This document shows, piece by piece, positions 3,511-44,142 of a DNA stretch of 46,344 nucleotides. This DNA comes from an uncultured Acidobacteriota bacterium (GTDB lineage: Bacteria; Acidobacteriota; Thermoanaerobaculia; UBA5066). The notes beneath the pieces are model-generated. The model searched no databases. It saw only the letters and a list, made by a program, of their open reading frames with translations, and had not been told where the DNA came from. The translations under genes and the position numbers were made by a program. Location: NCBI GenBank assembly GCA_903845115.1, contig CAIMWE010000239.1, forward strand, positions 1-46,344, in the 5' to 3' direction. Each line of letters begins with the position of its first letter. Position 1 is the first letter of the stretch.

Positions 3511-5688
3511 TCACCGCGGCAGGAGCGTCCTCGGGTCGTTCGTCGTGGCGTCGATGAGGGCGGCGTAGGCGGCCAGGGCGCCGGAGGCGGTCGGGGTGGA
3601 GAGGACGAGCCGCCCGGCGGTGTCGGCGGCGACCCCGAGGTCCCGGACGACGCGCGTCACCTGGGTCATGCCGAGGGGAGGGAGCGTGTAGCGCTTCGAG
3701 GCGAGGACGGCTCCGCTCGCGTCGACGAGGGAAACGTCTGCGTAGAGGGGCGACGTGGTGCCGTTCGTCAGGATCAGGTTCGTCCGGAAGGCCCCGTCCT
3801 CGCGGACGCCGAGGATCGTCCTGGTCGAGCCGGAGCGGATCAGGTCGGCGTCGGCGAACGCCGGGACGCTCTGGCCGAAGGTCCCGCCTCCCGGCGCCGG
3901 CGTGGAGGTCTGGCCGGAAACGGCGAGCGCCGTCGTGGACGAGGCGACGCGGAGGGCTCCGTAGCCGGAGGAGAGGCCGAAGACCGAGCCGAGGACGTCC
4001 GCGTAGGTCGCCCCCTTGCCCGCGGCGAGGGTGAAGCTCTTCTCCGTCCCGGCGGTGCCGTCGGCGTCGTGCCCGAGGAACTTCAGCGTGAGGGTGGCGT
4101 CGGACGTTCCCGTGTTCGCGATGGCGAGATCGGTCGTGTAGAAAGCGCCCCCGGCGCCCGAGGCCCGGGCGCTCGAAGGGAGGAGCCACGTGGCGGCGGG
4201 CGGCGGGACAGGAGGGGCCGCCACGGTGTAAGAGAAGGCGACCTGGCCGCTCACCTGCGTGGCGTTCTCGTCCTTCGGAAGGAACTCGCGGACGTACTCG
4301 ACCTTCACTCCCGTGGACGCCACCGTCACCCGCAGGTAGCCCGCGTTGGGGAGGACGTCCCCTGACGTGTAGGCGTCGGCGTTGAACGCGGTGTAGGTGT
4401 AGTCGGCCGGGATCGGAACCTCCTGGTAGGTCACACCGTCGAGCTGCTGGTGGGCGAAGAGGTGGTCGTGCCCCTGGAAGAAGATCGTCACGTGGTTGGC
4501 GACCATCAGCTGGTGGAGCGGGACCGGCCACGTCGGGCGGCGCGTGGGGAATCCCCAGCTGCCGTCGGCGTCGTGGCCGCCCCACTCGTACTGGCCGGCG
4601 ATCTCGATGCCGCCCCGCCCCGTTCCCATCACGTGGTGGGCGAAGACGAACTTCCACTTCGCCGTGCTCTGCTCGAGGGTCTGCTGGAGCCACTGATATT
4701 GCGTGTCGCCGTGCGAGATGAGCCACCGGTCGGCCGTCTTCCCGGACGAGCTGCCGATCCCGTTGTCGACCATGGCGGGCGAGCTCCAGTAGGGGTCGAT
4801 GACGACGAAGAGGGCGTCCCCGTTCTGCCAGGCGTAGGAGTTCCGGAGCGGCCCGATGCCGGAGAGCGGGCTGGCGTTTCCCGAGTAGAAGGCGCCGGTC
4901 GAGGCGTCGTTCGGCGCCGGCATCGGGTAGTAGAGGTTCCGCGCGTTCTGGGCCCAGACGGGGACCTGGTTGCTGTTCGTGCCGTCGGAGGGGAGGTTGT
5001 AATTCCAGAGCGACGCCTGCTCGTGGTTTCCGTTCACCAGGAAGAGCGTGGAGCTGCGCGAGACGAGGTCGAGCCAGGGGAGCTGGAGGGTGTACCGCCC
5101 GGTGACGGAGGGCTGCGTGTAGGGGGTGGGAAGGGTGTCGACGCTGAAGTCGTCGCCGCTCAGGATGTAGAAGTCGGGCTGGTCCTTCGAGGCGGCGGTC
5201 AGCGTCTGAACGTAGAGGTCCGGGTCGAACATCGATTTCGCGCGCTCGGGGTGGGAGTCCCCCTGGATGCAGAAGACGAAGGAGCTGCCCGCCGGGCGCA
5301 TCGTGTGGAAGGTCCGCTCGGAGCCCGCCGTGAAGGCGCCGGTCGTGCCGGCCGTGCGGTACTGGAGGCGGTAGTAGTAGCGGGTGTCGGCGGCGAGGCC
5401 CGGGATCACCGTCTGCGAGGCGAAGAAGCCGGTCGCGTACGGGTCGGCCGGCAGGACGGCGGCCGGCGTGGCGCCGGTGTAGGCGCCGGAGGAGACGCCG
5501 TACTGGAAGGAGATCTCGAGGGCCGCGTCGGCGCGCGCGCCGATCGTCACCGAGCGGTCGGTCAGCTGCCCGGCAACGAGCGTGACCGTCGGAGCCGCTT
5601 CGAGCGGGGCCGGGGCGAGCGAAGTGACCGCAAGGAGGAGGGCGGGGGCCAGGCGGTTCAATGCGGAGAAGGGCGGGAAGTTCTTCAT
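3511..5688 (-). CDS. Exported metallophosphoesterase with FnIII-like N-domain and C-terminal beta module (copy 1)
   Basis: 725 aa. The signal peptide spans about residues 1-32. A fibronectin-like domain of the purple-acid-phosphatase type follows (about 34-130, with the strand motif YYYRL). The calcineurin-like catalytic domain carries the metal-binding motifs GDSH (D144, H146), SGDD (D179), GNHE (N221, H222), HH in FAHHVMG, and GHDH. A proline-rich linker leads to a C-terminal module (about 490-725) nearly the same as in the upstream paralogue. It should hydrolyse phosphomono- or diesters outside the cytoplasm; the substrate is unknown. The ATG overlaps the stop of the upstream gene (ATGA at 5685-5688), so translation is probably coupled. 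The longer in-frame opening up to 7869 is antisense to nothing but runs through the neighbour in the wrong frame, so it was not used. Confidence 0.9.
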   Translation of the reverse strand: MKNFPPFSALNRLAPALLLAVTSLAPAPLEAAPTVTLVAGQLTDRSVTIGARADAALEISFQYGVSSGAYTGATPAAVLPADPYATGFFASQTVIPGLAADTRYYYRLQYRTAGTTGAFTAGSERTFHTMRPAGSSFVFCIQGDSHPERAKSMFDPDLYVQTLTAASKDQPDFYILSGDDFSVDTLPTPYTQPSVTGRYTLQLPWLDLVSRSSTLFLVNGNHEQASLWNYNLPSDGTNSNQVPVWAQNARNLYYPMPAPNDASTGAFYSGNASPLSGIGPLRNSYAWQNGDALFVVIDPYWSSPAMVDNGIGSSSGKTADRWLISHGDTQYQWLQQTLEQSTAKWKFVFAHHVMGTGRGGIEIAGQYEWGGHDADGSWGFPTRRPTWPVPLHQLMVANHVTIFFQGHDHLFAHQQLDGVTYQEVPIPADYTYTAFNADAYTSGDVLPNAGYLRVTVASTGVKVEYVREFLPKDENATQVSGQVAFSYTVAAPPVPPPAATWLLPSSARASGAGGAFYTTDLAIANTGTSDATLTLKFLGHDADGTAGTEKSFTLAAGKGATYADVLGSVFGLSSGYGALRVASSTTALAVSGQTSTPAPGGGTFGQSVPAFADADLIRSGSTRTILGVREDGAFRTNLILTNGTTSPLYADVSLVDASGAVLASKRYTLPPLGMTQVTRVVRDLGVAADTAGRLVLSTPTASGALAAYAALIDATTNDPRTLLPR
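3515..4195. repeat. Long direct repeat, copy A (C-terminal module DNA)
   Basis: This stretch matches 5689-6372 closely at the DNA level by eye (offset 2174 to 2177 bp, so at least one 3-bp indel). It encodes the C-terminal module of phosphoesterase copy 1. Similarity falls off sharply once the catalytic domain begins. Confidence 0.75.
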
Positions 5689-7859
5689 CGCGGCAGGAGC
5701 GTCCTCGGATCGTTCGTGGTGGCGTCGATGACGGAGGCGTAGGCGGCGAAGGAGCCTCCGGCCGTGGGGGTCGAGAGGACAGCGCGTGCGCCGCTGACGT
5801 CGGACGAGACCCCCAGGTCGCGTGCGACGCGGGTCACCTGGGTCATCCCGAGGGGCGGCAGGGAGTAGCGTTTGGTGGCGAGCGCCGCCCCGCTCTCGGC
5901 GACGAGCGCGACGTCGACGTCGAGGGGCGAGGTCGTCGCGTTCGCGAGGATCAGGTTCGTCCGGAACGCGGAGTCCTCCCGGACGCCCAGGATCGTCCGA
6001 GGCGTCCCGGCCAGGACCAGATCGGCCGCGCCGAAGCCGGGGACGCTCTGGCCGAACGTCCCGCCTGCGGGCGCCGGGGTCGAGGTCTGGCTCGAGACGG
6101 CGAGGGAGGCGGTGGACGAGGCGACCCGGATCGCGCCGTAGCCGGAGGAGAGGCCGAAGACGGAGCCCAGGACGTCCGTGTACGCGGCCGACCTCCCGGC
6201 GGCGAGCGTGAAGCTCTTCTCGGGGCCGGCCGTCCCGTCCGCGTCGTGCCCGAGGAACTTCAGCGTGAGGGAGGCGTCGGCGGTCCCCGTGTTCGCGACG
6301 GCGAGATCGGTCGTGTAGAAGGCGCCGCCGGCGCCCGAGGCGTGCGCGCTGGACGGGAGGATCCAGGTCGCGGCAGCGGCGGGGCCTGTTCCCTTCCCCG
6401 TCACCGTGTACGAGAAGACGGTGTCTCCGTTGTGGCGGGTCGCGGTCTCGTCGGTCGGGAGGAGCGAGCGGACGTAGTCGACGGTCGCCTTTCCGCCTTC
6501 CACCTTGACCCGCAAGTGGCCGGAGCTGCCGTAGAGCACCCCGGTCGTGTAGCCGTAGTCGGCCGCGCTCGAGGTGCTGTCGGGGCGGGGGAAGCCCGGC
6601 TGCGGGACCTCGTGGTAGACGATCCCGTCGAGGTCCTGCTTGACGAAGAGGTGGTCGTGTCCGTGGAAGAGGGCGGTGACGCCGGTCCGGACGAACAGAG
6701 CGTGAATCGGTTCGGCCCAGCCGGGCCGCTTCGCGGCGAAGCCGGGGGAGCCGTCGGCGTTGGCCCCGCCCCACTCCCAGAGGCCGGCGGCCTCCACGCC
6801 GCCGCGGCGGTCCTTCCCGAACCCCCCCACGAGGTGGTGGACGAAGACGAACTTCAGCTTCGCCGGGCTCGTCTCGAGCGTTCTCTTCAGCCACGCGTAC
6901 TGGTCGGCCCCGAGCGTCCAGCTCCAGTTGTCGGTCCCGTTCCCCTGCGCCCGCGTCGGCCAGAAGGGGTCCAGCACCACGGTCAGGACGTCGCCCCAGG
7001 TGAAGGCGTAGTAGTTCTGGAGCAGCCCGACGCTCGGCTCGGGTGTCGAGTTCCCCGTGTAGAACGAGTCCGGGACCGGGTTCGGGAAGAGCTGGGTCCG
7101 CAGGAGCGCGGACCACTCGGGCATACTCGTGGTTTGGCCGTCGGCCAGCCAGCCGAGCTCCCCGTCGTGGTTCCCGAGCGTGAAGAAGAGGGGGGCCGAC
7201 GAGCAGACCAGCCCGAGGTAGTAGCGCTGGGCGTAGTACTGCGGCAGGGCGTCGGTGAAGACCGGGTACTTCTCCGTCATGAAGGTGTCGCCGAGGTCGA
7301 CGTGGAAATCGGGGAGGTCCGCGGCCGCGTTCGCGAGCGTCCGGGCGTAGAGGGCGGTCGACGTGTTGCTGTCCAGGTGCGAGTCGGCCTGGATCGTGAA
7401 GGTGAAGCTCGCGCCCGGGGGGCGCGCGGTCCGGAAGCGCTGCGAGGTGGTGGCGGTGTAAGCGCCGCTCGTCCCCGACCGCCACCAGAGGCGGTACGTG
7501 TAGGCGGTGTCGGCCTGGAGGGAGTCGAGGAGGAACTCGACCCCCTGCTCCTTCGGGAGCGGCTGGACCGCGGTGGAGGTCGGAGCGCCTCCGGACGCGG
7601 GTGAGAACTCGGCGAACCCGTCCCCGTCCTGGTACGCGACGACGCTGACGACGACGCTGCGGCCGGTGGGCCTCCCCAGGATCACGTCGACCGGGTGCGC
7701 CGGGACGTCGAAGGCAGCGGCCGCAGGGAGGGCTCCGAGGAGAGCGACGATCGCGAGCATCCGGTACCGCGCTCGTACGCCGGCTCCAGCCGGGCGTGCA
7801 GGAAAGGTCTGTGAGGAACGTAGACCGCCGGGAATCGCGCCGGAGCCGTTCGTTGCCAT
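5685..7859 (-). CDS. Exported metallophosphoesterase with FnIII-like N-domain and C-terminal beta module (copy 2)
   Basis: 724 aa from the ATG at 7859, which lies 10 nt after the response-regulator stop. An internal ATG at 7760 would put the hydrophobic signal segment (LAIVALLGALPAAAA) right at the N-terminus but has no Shine-Dalgarno sequence, so the start is open. The order is signal segment, FnIII-like domain (about 56-145, TYRLWW), then a calcineurin-like domain with ADSH (D159, H161), LGD (D191), GNHD (N230-D232), VHH and GHDH. The C-terminal module is almost the same as in copy 1, while the catalytic domains look only about one-third identical by eye. The two enzymes probably share location but differ in substrate. 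The stop overlaps the next ATG. Confidence 0.9.
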   Translation of the reverse strand: MATNGSGAIPGGLRSSQTFPARPAGAGVRARYRMLAIVALLGALPAAAAFDVPAHPVDVILGRPTGRSVVVSVVAYQDGDGFAEFSPASGGAPTSTAVQPLPKEQGVEFLLDSLQADTAYTYRLWWRSGTSGAYTATTSQRFRTARPPGASFTFTIQADSHLDSNTSTALYARTLANAAADLPDFHVDLGDTFMTEKYPVFTDALPQYYAQRYYLGLVCSSAPLFFTLGNHDGELGWLADGQTTSMPEWSALLRTQLFPNPVPDSFYTGNSTPEPSVGLLQNYYAFTWGDVLTVVLDPFWPTRAQGNGTDNWSWTLGADQYAWLKRTLETSPAKLKFVFVHHLVGGFGKDRRGGVEAAGLWEWGGANADGSPGFAAKRPGWAEPIHALFVRTGVTALFHGHDHLFVKQDLDGIVYHEVPQPGFPRPDSTSSAADYGYTTGVLYGSSGHLRVKVEGGKATVDYVRSLLPTDETATRHNGDTVFSYTVTGKGTGPAAAATWILPSSAHASGAGGAFYTTDLAVANTGTADASLTLKFLGHDADGTAGPEKSFTLAAGRSAAYTDVLGSVFGLSSGYGAIRVASSTASLAVSSQTSTPAPAGGTFGQSVPGFGAADLVLAGTPRTILGVREDSAFRTNLILANATTSPLDVDVALVAESGAALATKRYSLPPLGMTQVTRVARDLGVSSDVSGARAVLSTPTAGGSFAAYASVIDATTNDPRTLLPR
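5689..6372. repeat. Long direct repeat, copy B (C-terminal module DNA)
   Basis: Partner of 3515-4195. Both begin with the CGCGGCAGGAGCGTCCTCGG stretch and both contain GCGAGATCGGTCGTGTAGAA near the far end. It encodes the C-terminal module of phosphoesterase copy 2. Confidence 0.75.
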
Positions 7860-40828: not shown

Positions 40829-41054
40829 GACAACCCTCCATCCGGCACCGTAAGCGGCCTCGCGGGCCGAGTCAACAGCCAGGACGACGGCGTCGCCGGG
40901 AAAGCGAGGTCCCCCGCGAACCGCCCGGGAGATAAAATCCATCGAGCCAAGGTCGACCGTGATCCGGGGGCGCCGGAAGAGGCCGTCGCCCAGTCCGAAT
41001 TCCTGCTGCTCGGAAGCCCTCGACCGATTCCCGACAACACGGAGGTGCCGAAAG

Positions 41055-41534
41055 ATGAAGAGACCGTTCCTCCCCAGGGTCCTCGTCCTCTGCTGCGTCG
41101 TCGCGGCGCTGTCGACGACGCTCGCGTGGGCCCTCCCCGGCACGAAGAAGAAGGCCGACCCGATCGGCGACCTCCGGGCCGCCGTCGCGAAGAACGTGGC
41201 GGACCCCGACCGGGCGTCGAGGATGTCCTCCTCGGTCGACGAGATGGAGAGGCTGATCCGCGAGGCCGGGGCGCTGGTCGCGAAGCGGCAGCAGGAGCTG
41301 GCCCCGCTCGTCCGGGACTACCGCGCTTCCCGGGAGGCGGTCGAGGCGAAGCTCGCGGAGGGGAACGACCAGCGGGCCGCGCTCGCGCGGAAGGTCCTGG
41401 ACGCTCACCTTGCCTTCAAGAAGGAAGCCACCCCCGCCGAGTGGAAGAAGCTGGCGAAGCTGGAGGAGCGGGCCCTGGCGTACGCCGCGGCCAGCTCGCT
41501 GGGCCAGGAACCGATTCTAGCCAAGGAGAACTGA
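41055..41534 (+). CDS. Small exported helical protein, unknown function (first of pair)
   Basis: 159 aa; ATG 41055 with GGAGGT 8 nt upstream. A signal peptide ([18 protein letters not shown]) precedes a highly charged, almost entirely helical mature part with likely coiled coil. The segment [23 protein letters not shown] resembles the C-terminus of the next gene's product (DSVFALKKTLTEDEWKAVF). No family recognised with certainty. A TAAAAT -10-like box lies at 40933-40938 in the divergent gap with pgm. Probably co-transcribed with the next gene 4 nt downstream. Confidence 0.75.
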
Positions 41535-41538
41535 CGTC

Positions 41539-41919
41539 ATGATCGCAGCAGCAGTCCTCTCCCTGTCTCTCCTCGCGGGCGGAAACGGCGCGCTCGGGGC
41601 GCAGGTCTTCTTCCCCGAGATGGCCGCGGCCATCAAGAAGATCGTGACCGACGGCGCCCGGGCCGACGCGGCCGTGGGGATCGTCGAGCAGTCCCGGAAG
41701 GAGAGCGAGGCGACCGTGAAGCGGGCGGCGGAGGTGGCCAAGCAGTTCCAGAAGGCCGATACGAAGCCCGACACCGTCCTCGCCGACCTCCAGCCCTTCC
41801 TCGACTCGATCGCCGCCGAGCGCCAGCGCGGCCAGAAGGAATCCCTCGACAGCGTCTTCGCCCTGAAGAAGACGCTGACCGAGGACGAGTGGAAGGCCGT
41901 CTTCGCGGGGGCGAAGTAA
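41539..41919 (+). CDS. Small exported helical protein, unknown function (second of pair)
   Basis: 126 aa; ATG 41539 with AAGGAG about 10 nt upstream, inside the end of the previous gene. A short signal peptide (AAAVLSLSLLAGGNGALGA) is followed by charged helices. The C-terminal motif LKKTLTEDEWKAVF aligns with that of its neighbour, so the two are probably diverged paralogues or partners. No known domain recognised. Likely periplasmic. Confidence 0.72.
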   Translation: MIAAAVLSLSLLAGGNGALGAQVFFPEMAAAIKKIVTDGARADAAVGIVEQSRKESEATVKRAAEVAKQFQKADTKPDTVLADLQPFLDSIAAERQRGQKESLDSVFALKKTLTEDEWKAVFAGAK

Positions 41920-42060: not shown

Positions 42061-44142
42061 ATGACCTTGGAAGCCGCTCCCGCTGAGGTCCGGAAGGAAA
42101 TCCGCCGCCAGCGGCGGTTCCCGTCCACCCTCGGCCTGGCGATCGTCGCGGCCTCGGTCGCCGCCCTCCTCGCGGCGGCGCCGGCTGCGGCCTTCGACAG
42201 CAAGGGGCACAACGTCATCGAGGCCCTCGCGTACCGGACCCTCGTCGAGGGGCGCGACGGCCAGCCGCCGCGGCCAGACGTCCTGCGCGACCTGCTGAAC
42301 GACGGGGCGCTCGAGCCCCCCACCTGCTTCGGCGCTCCGAGCCCCAGGTCGCGCCTCTGCGTCGACGCCGACCACGAGAACCCGCTCCTCCTCTGGCCCC
42401 AGCCGCGGACCGACCGCCCGGACGCCTTCTTCCGGCGCCAGTTCAGCGACCCGGGGCAGTGCTTCCACTACATGGCGATGCTCGCGGATGCCCAGTCGGA
42501 TCCGTTCCCGGGGACCGGCATCCCGCGCGCCCTGGCGACCCGCGCGGTGGTCCGCTGCAACGACCTCCTCGACAACCTCCTCCGGCAGGTCGTCGTGGAC
42601 GGCGGCCCTGGAGTGCGCAAGAGCGGGAACGGCCTCTACGAGATGATGCACGCGGTGGCCGACTCGTTCTCGAGGGCCCACACGGAACGCGACGGGAGCG
42701 GGGACGTCGACTACCTGCGCGTCTGGAAACCGATCGAGAAGCTGGTGAAACTCCCGACCGAGCGCTCGAAGGGGATCCCGCCTGCCGTCTTCCACGTCTG
42801 GGACGACCACCGGGACAAGACGTACGTGACGGAAGGGGAGCCGGGCCGCTGCGAGAAGCGGGCCGACCAACCGTACGACGTCCCCTACGAGTGCCTCTCG
42901 GCGGAGGGAGACCGGGCTCGGCGGGCCCTCGCCGAGCTGATCGTCCTCGTCCGCGACCTCCGCCTCGCCCAGCAGGGGGCCACGCCGGGCACGGACACCC
43001 ATCCGGAGAGAGCGGACGTCTGGCAGGCCTACCGGACGAAGTGGTTCACGGCGGTCCACCTCTGCTCGGGGGCCGAGTGCGACGAGCGCCAGCAGGCGGA
43101 CGTCGAGCCGGGGCGCTACTCCCTCCTCGGCCCCTTCCTCCGGACCAACCCGACCGCCCACTACTCCGAGCTGGGCGTGGAGGGGAACGTCCTGAAGTTC
43201 TCGGAGGCCTTCAATCCTTTCGTCTACTCGGTCGTCGCCTCCGCCGCCTGGCGGCGGTACAGGGACGGGAGCGACAGCGGGGTCTTCGGGCTCGGGATCG
43301 GCCTGACGCTGCCCGTCGGTTTCAAGACCGCCATCGGATTCACCCCTGCGGCCGTCCGGATGGTCGCCGGGGGGACCCATTCGGGGCCGGAGTTCGTCTC
43401 CCGGCTCCTCCGCTTCGACGTGAGGATCGGCGACGACCTCTTCGTGACGGTCGACGGGCCGGTCGAGGTCAACTGGCTCGAGCCGCGGGCGGAGTGGTCG
43501 ATCGCCGCCGGAGTGACCTGGGCGCTCCGCTCGTTCCGGATGGCCGGGGGCCCGATCGTCGAGCAGCACTCCGAGAGGGCCGACCGCCACGACGACGGCT
43601 GGACGCCCCCGGCCGCCCCGTACGGCCGGCTGGAGGGCCGCGCCACCACCCTCCGCCTCCTCACCACCTTCACCGTCGACGGGACCCCGGACACGGCGGT
43701 CGAGGGGCAGAAGTACGGCCTCGCCGCGCTCGGCGCCGAGCTGGCGTGGGACCGGGACGCGTGGGGAGGGAAGTTCGAGTGGGTACCGGCCGCCTCCCTC
43801 ACCGTCGGCACGCGGGCGACCTCCGGGGACTCCGCGTACCTGACGGGAGCCCTGGGAGCCTCCGTCCGGTGGTATTTCGCCAGGCCCCTGGGGCTTTCCT
43901 TCACCCCCGTCCGCATCGAGGGAGGACCGAAGGTCCGGGGGAACAGCGAGGCCGACGCCTCCCCCGGCGTCCACGGCGGCGCCGGGAGCCAGTACTACCT
44001 GCAGGCGGGCTCCCGCCTCGGGCTCGCCCTGAACACCGGGATCTTCGACCTCGTCGTGGAGGGGCCGACGCTCGCCTGGACCTCCACCCCGTACGCGGGC
44101 AAGGAGATCTTCAGCGTCCGCCTCGGGATCCAGCTCAACTAG
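42061..44142 (+). CDS. Predicted zinc phospholipase C/S1-P1 nuclease-like domain fused to an outer-membrane barrel
   Basis: 693 aa; ATG 42061 with GGAGGGG upstream. The signal peptide is predicted to be cut before F45. The N-terminal domain (about 45-320) is helical and keeps the ligand spacing of the trinuclear-zinc PLC/S1-P1 fold: GH at H50, VDADH (D104), FHYMAM (H136), H197-x3-D201-x5-H207, and H245-x3-D249. The mature N-terminal residue is Phe rather than the usual Trp. About 330-693 alternates in short strands typical of a barrel and ends FSVRLGIQLN. It may hydrolyse phospholipid or nucleic acid at the cell surface. The family call is from spacing, not overall similarity. Confidence 0.7.
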   Translation: MTLEAAPAEVRKEIRRQRRFPSTLGLAIVAASVAALLAAAPAAAFDSKGHNVIEALAYRTLVEGRDGQPPRPDVLRDLLNDGALEPPTCFGAPSPRSRLCVDADHENPLLLWPQPRTDRPDAFFRRQFSDPGQCFHYMAMLADAQSDPFPGTGIPRALATRAVVRCNDLLDNLLRQVVVDGGPGVRKSGNGLYEMMHAVADSFSRAHTERDGSGDVDYLRVWKPIEKLVKLPTERSKGIPPAVFHVWDDHRDKTYVTEGEPGRCEKRADQPYDVPYECLSAEGDRARRALAELIVLVRDLRLAQQGATPGTDTHPERADVWQAYRTKWFTAVHLCSGAECDERQQADVEPGRYSLLGPFLRTNPTAHYSELGVEGNVLKFSEAFNPFVYSVVASAAWRRYRDGSDSGVFGLGIGLTLPVGFKTAIGFTPAAVRMVAGGTHSGPEFVSRLLRFDVRIGDDLFVTVDGPVEVNWLEPRAEWSIAAGVTWALRSFRMAGGPIVEQHSERADRHDDGWTPPAAPYGRLEGRATTLRLLTTFTVDGTPDTAVEGQKYGLAALGAELAWDRDAWGGKFEWVPAASLTVGTRATSGDSAYLTGALGASVRWYFARPLGLSFTPVRIEGGPKVRGNSEADASPGVHGGAGSQYYLQAGSRLGLALNTGIFDLVVEGPTLAWTSTPYAGKEIFSVRLGIQLN

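What the first reader, a model, noticed from the sequence alone, without database searches (positions are those of the whole stretch)
42061..44142. Trinuclear-zinc hydrolase domain on an outer-membrane barrel
Residues 45-320 keep the HxxxDxxxxxH and HxxxD spacing of PLC/S1-P1 enzymes, plus the upstream His and Asp ligands. The predicted mature N-terminus starts 5 residues before the first ligand His, as needed for the N-terminal amino group to bind zinc. The rest looks like a barrel. A self-displayed phospholipase or nuclease of this design is one I do not recognise as described.
Basis: partly seen in the sequence, partly recalled or inferred. Interest (0 to 1): 0.6.

Follow-up and report, generated by a model that had tools for sequence, protein, structure and literature searches.

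The report
Zinc phosphoesterase fused to membrane barrel
A rare gene from an uncultured bacterium of the phylum Acidobacteriota joins what looks like a distant relative of the three-zinc nuclease/phospholipase enzymes to a barrel that would anchor it in the outer membrane; the enzyme half is well supported from sequence, but whether it faces outward or inward, and what it cuts, is unknown.

Summary
The gene at 42061-44142 is real (693 aa) and has 53-55%-identical homologues in only two other genomes of the same order. All are conserved in the full-length homologue. No Pfam, NCBIfam or PDB sequence search finds the family, yet the mature N-terminus beats about 326,000 control 17-mers on an S1/P1 profile, and profile alignment puts the H-D-H motif in register unaided. 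I place the N-half in the S1/P1-PLC superfamily as a divergent branch, nearer S1/P1 than PLC. The C-half has the beta-alternation of a barrel. Both AlphaFold runs failed (pLDDT 35 and 30), so fold and ligand convergence remain untested. 'Self-displayed' is unsupported: eight conserved cysteines, all upstream of the barrel, suggest folding in the periplasm, and PlpD, once thought self-displayed, keeps its enzyme there. Residues that bind nucleobases in S1/P1 nucleases are mostly missing, so the substrate is open. New variant of a known kind.

The parts
42061..44142 (+). whole gene, 693 aa: signal peptide, zinc-hydrolase-like domain, linker, barrel-like domain
   Evidence: ORF; GC3 0.95; homologues L003/L008 55% over full length and L004 53% over the C-terminal two thirds, cut by a contig end
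42061..42192 (+). signal peptide, residues 1-44, predicted cleavage A44|F45
   Evidence: best-scoring site of a matrix trained on 26 same-class S1/P1 signal peptides; same site in the homologue
42193..42243 (+). mature N-terminus F1-L17 (FDSKGHNVIEALAYRTL): proposed zinc ligands are the Phe1 amino/carbonyl group and His6 (H50)
   Evidence: scores above all ~326,000 control 17-mers on the S1/P1 profile, with or without position 1
42421..42423 (+). D121, proposed zinc ligand equivalent to the S1/P1 Asp (15 residues before H136); D118 at 42412-42414 is the alternative
   Evidence: position, conserved in the homologue; the same 15-residue step in the class S1/P1 alignment (D44, H59)
42466..42468 (+). 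H136, proposed zinc ligand; followed by an aromatic (Y137, Phe in the homologue)
   Evidence: global profile alignment puts CFHYMA on the S1/P1 LHYIN/WHYIN segment
42649..42681 (+). H197-x3-D201-x5-H207, core zinc motif
   Evidence: aligned in register with the S1/P1 H-D-H by hhalign, unaided, in two separate S1/P1 subfamily profiles
42793..42807 (+). H245-x3-D249, last two zinc ligands
   Evidence: H245 and D249 are invariant in all three homologues
42193..42990 (+). N-terminal zinc-hydrolase-like domain, residues 45 to about 310; alpha-amphipathic; six conserved Cys
   Evidence: 64% identity to the homologue, alpha periodicity z = 2.4, low-confidence models mostly helical here
42991..43155 (+). 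linker, about residues 311-365, with the conserved pair C335/C340
   Evidence: alignment; Cys conserved in all three
43168..44139 (+). barrel-like C-terminal half, residues 370-693: no Cys, 13.6% Gly, alternating hydrophobicity, last strand SVRLGIQLN
   Evidence: beta periodicity z = 4.1 over shuffles, alpha periodicity not raised; low-confidence model mostly beta

Best explanation
The protein is an outer-membrane-anchored zinc phosphoesterase. Sec exports it; signal peptidase I cuts after A44; the new N-terminal Phe (amino and carbonyl groups) with H50, D121, H136, H197, D201, H207, H245 and D249 binds three zinc ions, as in S1/P1 nucleases. The cluster activates water to cleave a phosphate ester. 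About four disulfides stabilise the part upstream of the barrel, and BAM inserts the C-terminal barrel. The enzyme most likely stays on the periplasmic face, under or beside the barrel, as shown for PlpD, with surface display the second choice (about 60:40). Shown from sequence: gene, homologues, signal-peptide site, ligand pattern, distant S1/P1 profile similarity, barrel-like periodicity, conserved Cys. Inferred: zinc binding, catalysis, barrel fold, disulfides, location. Substrate unknown: an organic phosphate, phospholipid or nucleic-acid fragment.
For: Ligand spacing equals SmNuc1's published set Trp27/His32/Asp71/His88/His141/Asp145/His151/His175/Asp179 (PMC11705217) except the Asp-His step: F45/H50 (+5), D121/H136 (+15; 17 in SmNuc1, 15 in class S1/P1), H197/D201/H207 (+4, +6), H245/D249 (+4). 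All are conserved in the full-length homologue. N-terminal block beats ~326,000 control windows. hhalign against 24 class S1/P1 proteins gives E 0.011 with the H-D-H in register, reached by 1 of 150 shuffles and 2 of 100 in a repeat. Block score z = 4.4, 1 of 1500 shuffles. Barrel periodicity z = 4.1. Genome encodes Omp85/BamA-type proteins. Eight Cys conserved, none in the barrel; large disulfide loops hinder passenger translocation and most autotransporter passengers are Cys-poor (PMC9769942); the PlpD enzyme domain is periplasmic (PMC11116518).
Against: No Pfam hit for this protein up to E = 10, no NCBIfam or PDB sequence hit. hhalign probability is only 0.4-4% on a 3-sequence profile, and against the divergent S1/P1 subgroup 13 of 100 shuffles do as well. 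The S1/P1 hallmark HQPLH is SFSRAH here. AlphaFold gave pLDDT 35 and 30, so no fold evidence exists. The last residue is Asn/Arg, not the aromatic usual in barrel C-termini (own knowledge). The location rests on analogy and Cys content only.
Confidence: 0.62

Rival explanations
1. One reading: the zinc domain is carried through or past its own barrel and displayed on the cell surface, working like the lipolytic autotransporter EstA (type Va: N-terminal enzyme, C-terminal barrel).
For: Domain order is that of type Va proteins; EstA shows that a mainly helical, globular hydrolase can be a type Va passenger (PMC6555100). A surface enzyme would reach phospholipids or nucleic acids outside the cell.
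Against: No autotransporter beta-domain or Omp85 hit. Eight conserved Cys upstream of the barrel, whereas most passengers are Cys-poor and large disulfide loops block translocation, though some disulfide-containing cargo has passed (PMC9769942). The barrel-like stretch of ~325 aa is longer than the 284-residue autotransporter domain of the EstA relative EstPS1 (abstract).
Confidence: 0.3
2. The N-domain descends from the S1/P1-PLC fold but has lost hydrolysis and uses its metal site, or only its fold, as a binding or gating plug for the barrel.
For: Nucleobase-site residues, the GGN motif and the HQPLH signature are missing; barrel proteins often carry plug domains (own knowledge); very few homologues.
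Against: All nine ligand positions are kept in a homologue at 55% identity, and the N-domain is better conserved (64%) than the barrel half (52%), as expected for an active site.
Confidence: 0.12
3. The ligand pattern is coincidence and the N-half is an unrelated helical, disulfide-rich domain.
For: No curated family or solved structure matches; the pattern alone arises in about 1 in 10,000 shuffled sequences, so one such protein per proteome could occur by chance; structure prediction failed.
Against: The N-terminal block, at exactly the predicted +1 position, beats ~326,000 controls; two profile comparisons pick the H-D-H in register; every ligand is conserved.
Confidence: 0.12

Closest known systems
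S1/P1 nuclease family (PF02265), e.g. SmNuc1 of Stenotrophomonas maltophilia, S1 nuclease
   Same: Signal-peptide-generated N-terminus, His at mature position 6, D-x14-H, HxxxDxxxxxH, HxxxD; aromatic after the second His; helical domain with disulfides
   Different: Phe instead of Trp at position 1; HQPLH is SFSRAH; no Asp/Asn three residues after the second His; no GGN; below every family cut-off; carries a C-terminal barrel
Bacterial zinc-dependent phospholipase C (PF00882)
   Same: Same superfamily ligand plan (own knowledge)
   Different: From my own knowledge PLC has the first His at position 14 and a final Glu; here position 6 and Asp. No PF00882 hit in this genome
PlpD / FplA (patatin-like domain + POTRA + Omp85 barrel, 'type Vd')
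   Same: N-terminal hydrolase fused to a C-terminal outer-membrane barrel; enzyme shown to stay in the periplasm (PMC11116518)
   Different: Patatin hydrolase, POTRA domain and 16-strand Omp85 barrel; none of these hit here
EstA (type Va lipolytic autotransporter)
   Same: Domain order; helical globular hydrolase before a barrel (PMC6555100)
   Different: GDSL esterase and a recognisable 12-strand autotransporter domain; no such hit here, many Cys here

Membership tests
S1/P1 nuclease-PLC superfamily | Nine zinc ligands with family spacing, including the mature N-terminal residue | tested here: met
   against the published SmNuc1 ligand set; the Asp is D121 or D118
S1/P1 nuclease-PLC superfamily | Sequence homology beyond the ligands | tested here: inconclusive
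   N-terminal block far above controls and H-D-H in register, but hhalign probability 0.4-4% and no Pfam hit
S1/P1 nuclease-PLC superfamily | Helical-bundle fold with converging ligands | tested here: inconclusive
   AlphaFold pLDDT 35 and 30; only helix content seen
S1/P1 nuclease family (PF02265) proper | Score above the Pfam cut-off | tested here: not met
   no hit up to E = 10 and none in the genome
S1/P1 nuclease family (PF02265) proper | Nucleobase site: aromatic and Asp/Asn after the second His, GGN Asn | tested here: not met
   aromatic kept (Y/F), the others absent
Zinc-dependent phospholipase C (PF00882) | Score above the Pfam cut-off; final ligand Glu | tested here: not met
   final ligand is Asp
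Type V autotransporter (Va or Vd) | Autotransporter beta-domain, or Omp85 barrel with POTRA | tested here: not met
   no hit in the protein; one search finds Omp85 genes elsewhere in the genome only
Type V autotransporter (Va or Vd) | Passenger exposed on the cell surface | not testable with these tools
   needs protease or antibody accessibility
Outer-membrane beta-barrel | Signal peptide plus amphipathic beta-strands over ~325 residues | tested here: met
   strand count and closure not testable

The most novel reading that the evidence does not exclude
A new outer-membrane enzyme type: a trinuclear-zinc phosphoesterase covalently fused to its own barrel, so that substrate passing through or exposed at the barrel is hydrolysed at the membrane, either as a surface enzyme or as a periplasmic 'porin with a built-in phosphatase'.
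Probability: 0.45. Interest if true: 0.6.

Novelty: new variant of a known kind. Interest (0 to 1): 0.42.

Why it matters
S1/P1 nucleases are common in Acidobacteriota as free exported enzymes of about 300 residues. One tied to its own outer-membrane barrel would extend the short list of hydrolase-barrel proteins (EstA, PlpD) to a zinc phosphoesterase, and it would test how a domain that needs its free N-terminus for metal binding, and probably several disulfides, is placed at the outer membrane.

Tried and rejected
The G132 homologue was left out of that alignment because it came from the genome search, which is not on the tool's list of accepted sources. Curated families and PDB sequence searches: nothing. 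First genome-contig scan, plasmids and viral contigs: no relative. Weak class and phylum hits (L005, L006, L015, L016, L063-L070) were short and low-scoring and treated as chance. Conserved gene neighbourhood: none visible among the three genomes. Other S1/P1-barrel fusions in the phylum: none seen among the long PF02265 frames that I read; those followed up were fused to other domains or merely had long upstream open frames. The automatic block search placed the D45/H60 blocks elsewhere than my assignment, so D121 versus D118 is left open.

Full report
What is there. The ORF at 42061-44142 on the + strand encodes 693 residues and has the codon-position GC profile of its neighbours (third position 0.95). 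The window is contig 239 of a 5.85-Mb draft genome. A homologue of 55% identity lies in another genome of the same order, and the same contig is held under the public title 'Acidobacteria bacterium isolate clean263'. A third, 53% identical and cut by a contig end, lies in a further genome of the order. No other member was found in the 149 genomes of the class or in 396 of the phylum, nor in plasmids or viral contigs. The gene neighbourhood is not shared, so it is a stand-alone gene as far as can be seen.

The N-terminal half. Published SmNuc1 zinc ligands are Trp27, His32, Asp71, His88, His141, Asp145, His151, His175 and Asp179 (PMC11705217); S1 nuclease also uses its N-terminal main chain (PMC5201275). 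Here the corresponding residues are F45, H50, D121 (or D118), H136, H197, D201, H207, H245 and D249, with the same +5, +4/+6 and +4 steps and an Asp-His step of 15, which is also the step in the class's own S1/P1 proteins. A signal-peptide matrix trained on 26 S1/P1 proteins of the class puts cleavage at A44|F45 in both full-length homologues, so the mature N-terminus is where a zinc ligand should be. All nine positions are conserved in the full-length homologue; the two covered by the truncated one are conserved there too. Of the histidines before residue 340, the five ligands and H250 are kept in the full-length homologue, while H105, H314 and H333 are not.

Is it more than chance? The bare pattern with loose gaps appears in 2 of 20,000 shuffles, too weak by itself. 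The mature N-terminal 17 residues, scored on the S1/P1 profile, beat every one of about 326,000 control windows, with or without position 1; on the profile of a second, more divergent S1/P1 group 3e-6 of controls do as well. The H-D-H block is reached by 1.6e-3 and 6e-5 of control positions on the two profiles. hhalign against 24 class S1/P1 proteins gives E 0.011 with the H-D-H motif in register, reached by 1 of 150 shuffles and 2 of 100; against the second group E is 0.15 with the same residues aligned, but 13 of 100 shuffles do as well. A five-block search scores z = 4.4 (1 of 1500 shuffles) and ranks this protein next after the recognisable members of the superfamily. Against this, no Pfam or NCBIfam model and no PDB sequence matches. 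I conclude divergent membership of the superfamily, about 0.85, with fold untested.

What the active site suggests. In S1 nuclease the nucleoside site uses Phe81, Asp83 and Asn154; in SmNuc1 Tyr89, Asn91 and Asn161. Here the aromatic is kept (Y137, Phe in the homologue) but the residue three after H136 is Ala139 in both, and no GGN is found after H207. The basic residue three after the Asp (Lys68, Arg74) is Phe124, with R125 and R126 beside it. A zinc phosphoesterase is the sensible reading; a nuclease in particular is not indicated, and neither is a phospholipase.

The C-terminal half. Residues 370-693 have no cysteine, 13.6% glycine and strong two-residue periodicity (z = 4.1) without raised helical periodicity, while residues 45-330 show the reverse. 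The unreliable AlphaFold models agree in being mostly helical over the first half and beta-rich afterwards. The genome has Omp85/BamA-type genes. An outer-membrane barrel is the likely reading, about 0.85, with strand number unknown. It matches no known barrel family.

Location. The protein has eight cysteines, all before residue 341 and all conserved where homologues cover them. Most autotransporter passengers are poor in cysteine and a large disulfide loop blocks their translocation, although some disulfide-containing cargo can pass (PMC9769942). PlpD, long taken for a self-displaying patatin, was shown to keep its enzyme domain in the periplasm beside the barrel (PMC11116518). EstA shows that display of a helical hydrolase is possible (PMC6555100). 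I favour the periplasmic face at about 60:40; this step is inference.

Comparison and novelty. It would work like an S1/P1-PLC-type zinc phosphoesterase and has the domain order of hydrolase-barrel proteins, but it meets neither the PF02265 nor the PF00882 cut-off, nor any type V family model. In the held literature I found no S1/P1- or PLC-barrel fusion, which is a limited search. S1/P1 proteins in the class and phylum are otherwise mostly free enzymes of about 300 residues. I call it a new variant of a known kind, of moderate interest because the two strongest tests (fold, location) remain open.

Noticed in passing
L047:1774-4008, L048:1251-3521, L050:1450-3585 (three other genomes of the class): Proteins of about 710-760 aa join a trypsin-like Nal1_C domain (PF25819, E 1e-11 to 1e-13) to an S1/P1 domain whose WGxxGH start is internal. 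The N-terminal zinc ligand would exist only after a cut before that Trp, which suggests a protease-nuclease zymogen, perhaps self-activated.
   Followed up: partly
L079:2048-4738 (genome G347): S1/P1-like domain fused to a type I phosphodiesterase/nucleotide pyrophosphatase domain (PF01663, E 2e-27) in one 976-codon frame.
   Followed up: partly
L081, - strand frame of 874 codons (genome G378): Good S1/P1 domain (E 9e-57) followed by a stretch that looks like a beta-propeller; that part was not tested.
   Followed up: no
L071-L088 (many Acidobacteriota genomes): A divergent S1/P1-like group of exported proteins with HxxxE as the last ligand pair, as in phospholipase C, and HYVxDxxxPLH; it seems to bridge the S1/P1 and PLC patterns.
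   Followed up: partly
window 40959-41534 and 41539-41919 (+): Two small exported-looking proteins directly upstream and co-oriented; the first has a sub-threshold hit to Metal_resist (PF13801, E 0.004). Not seen beside the homologues.
   Followed up: no
window 5685-7859 (-): Exported calcineurin-like metallophosphoesterase (PF00149, E 1e-6) whose AAAFDVPAH stretch superficially resembles the mature start of the gene studied; unrelated.
   Followed up: yes
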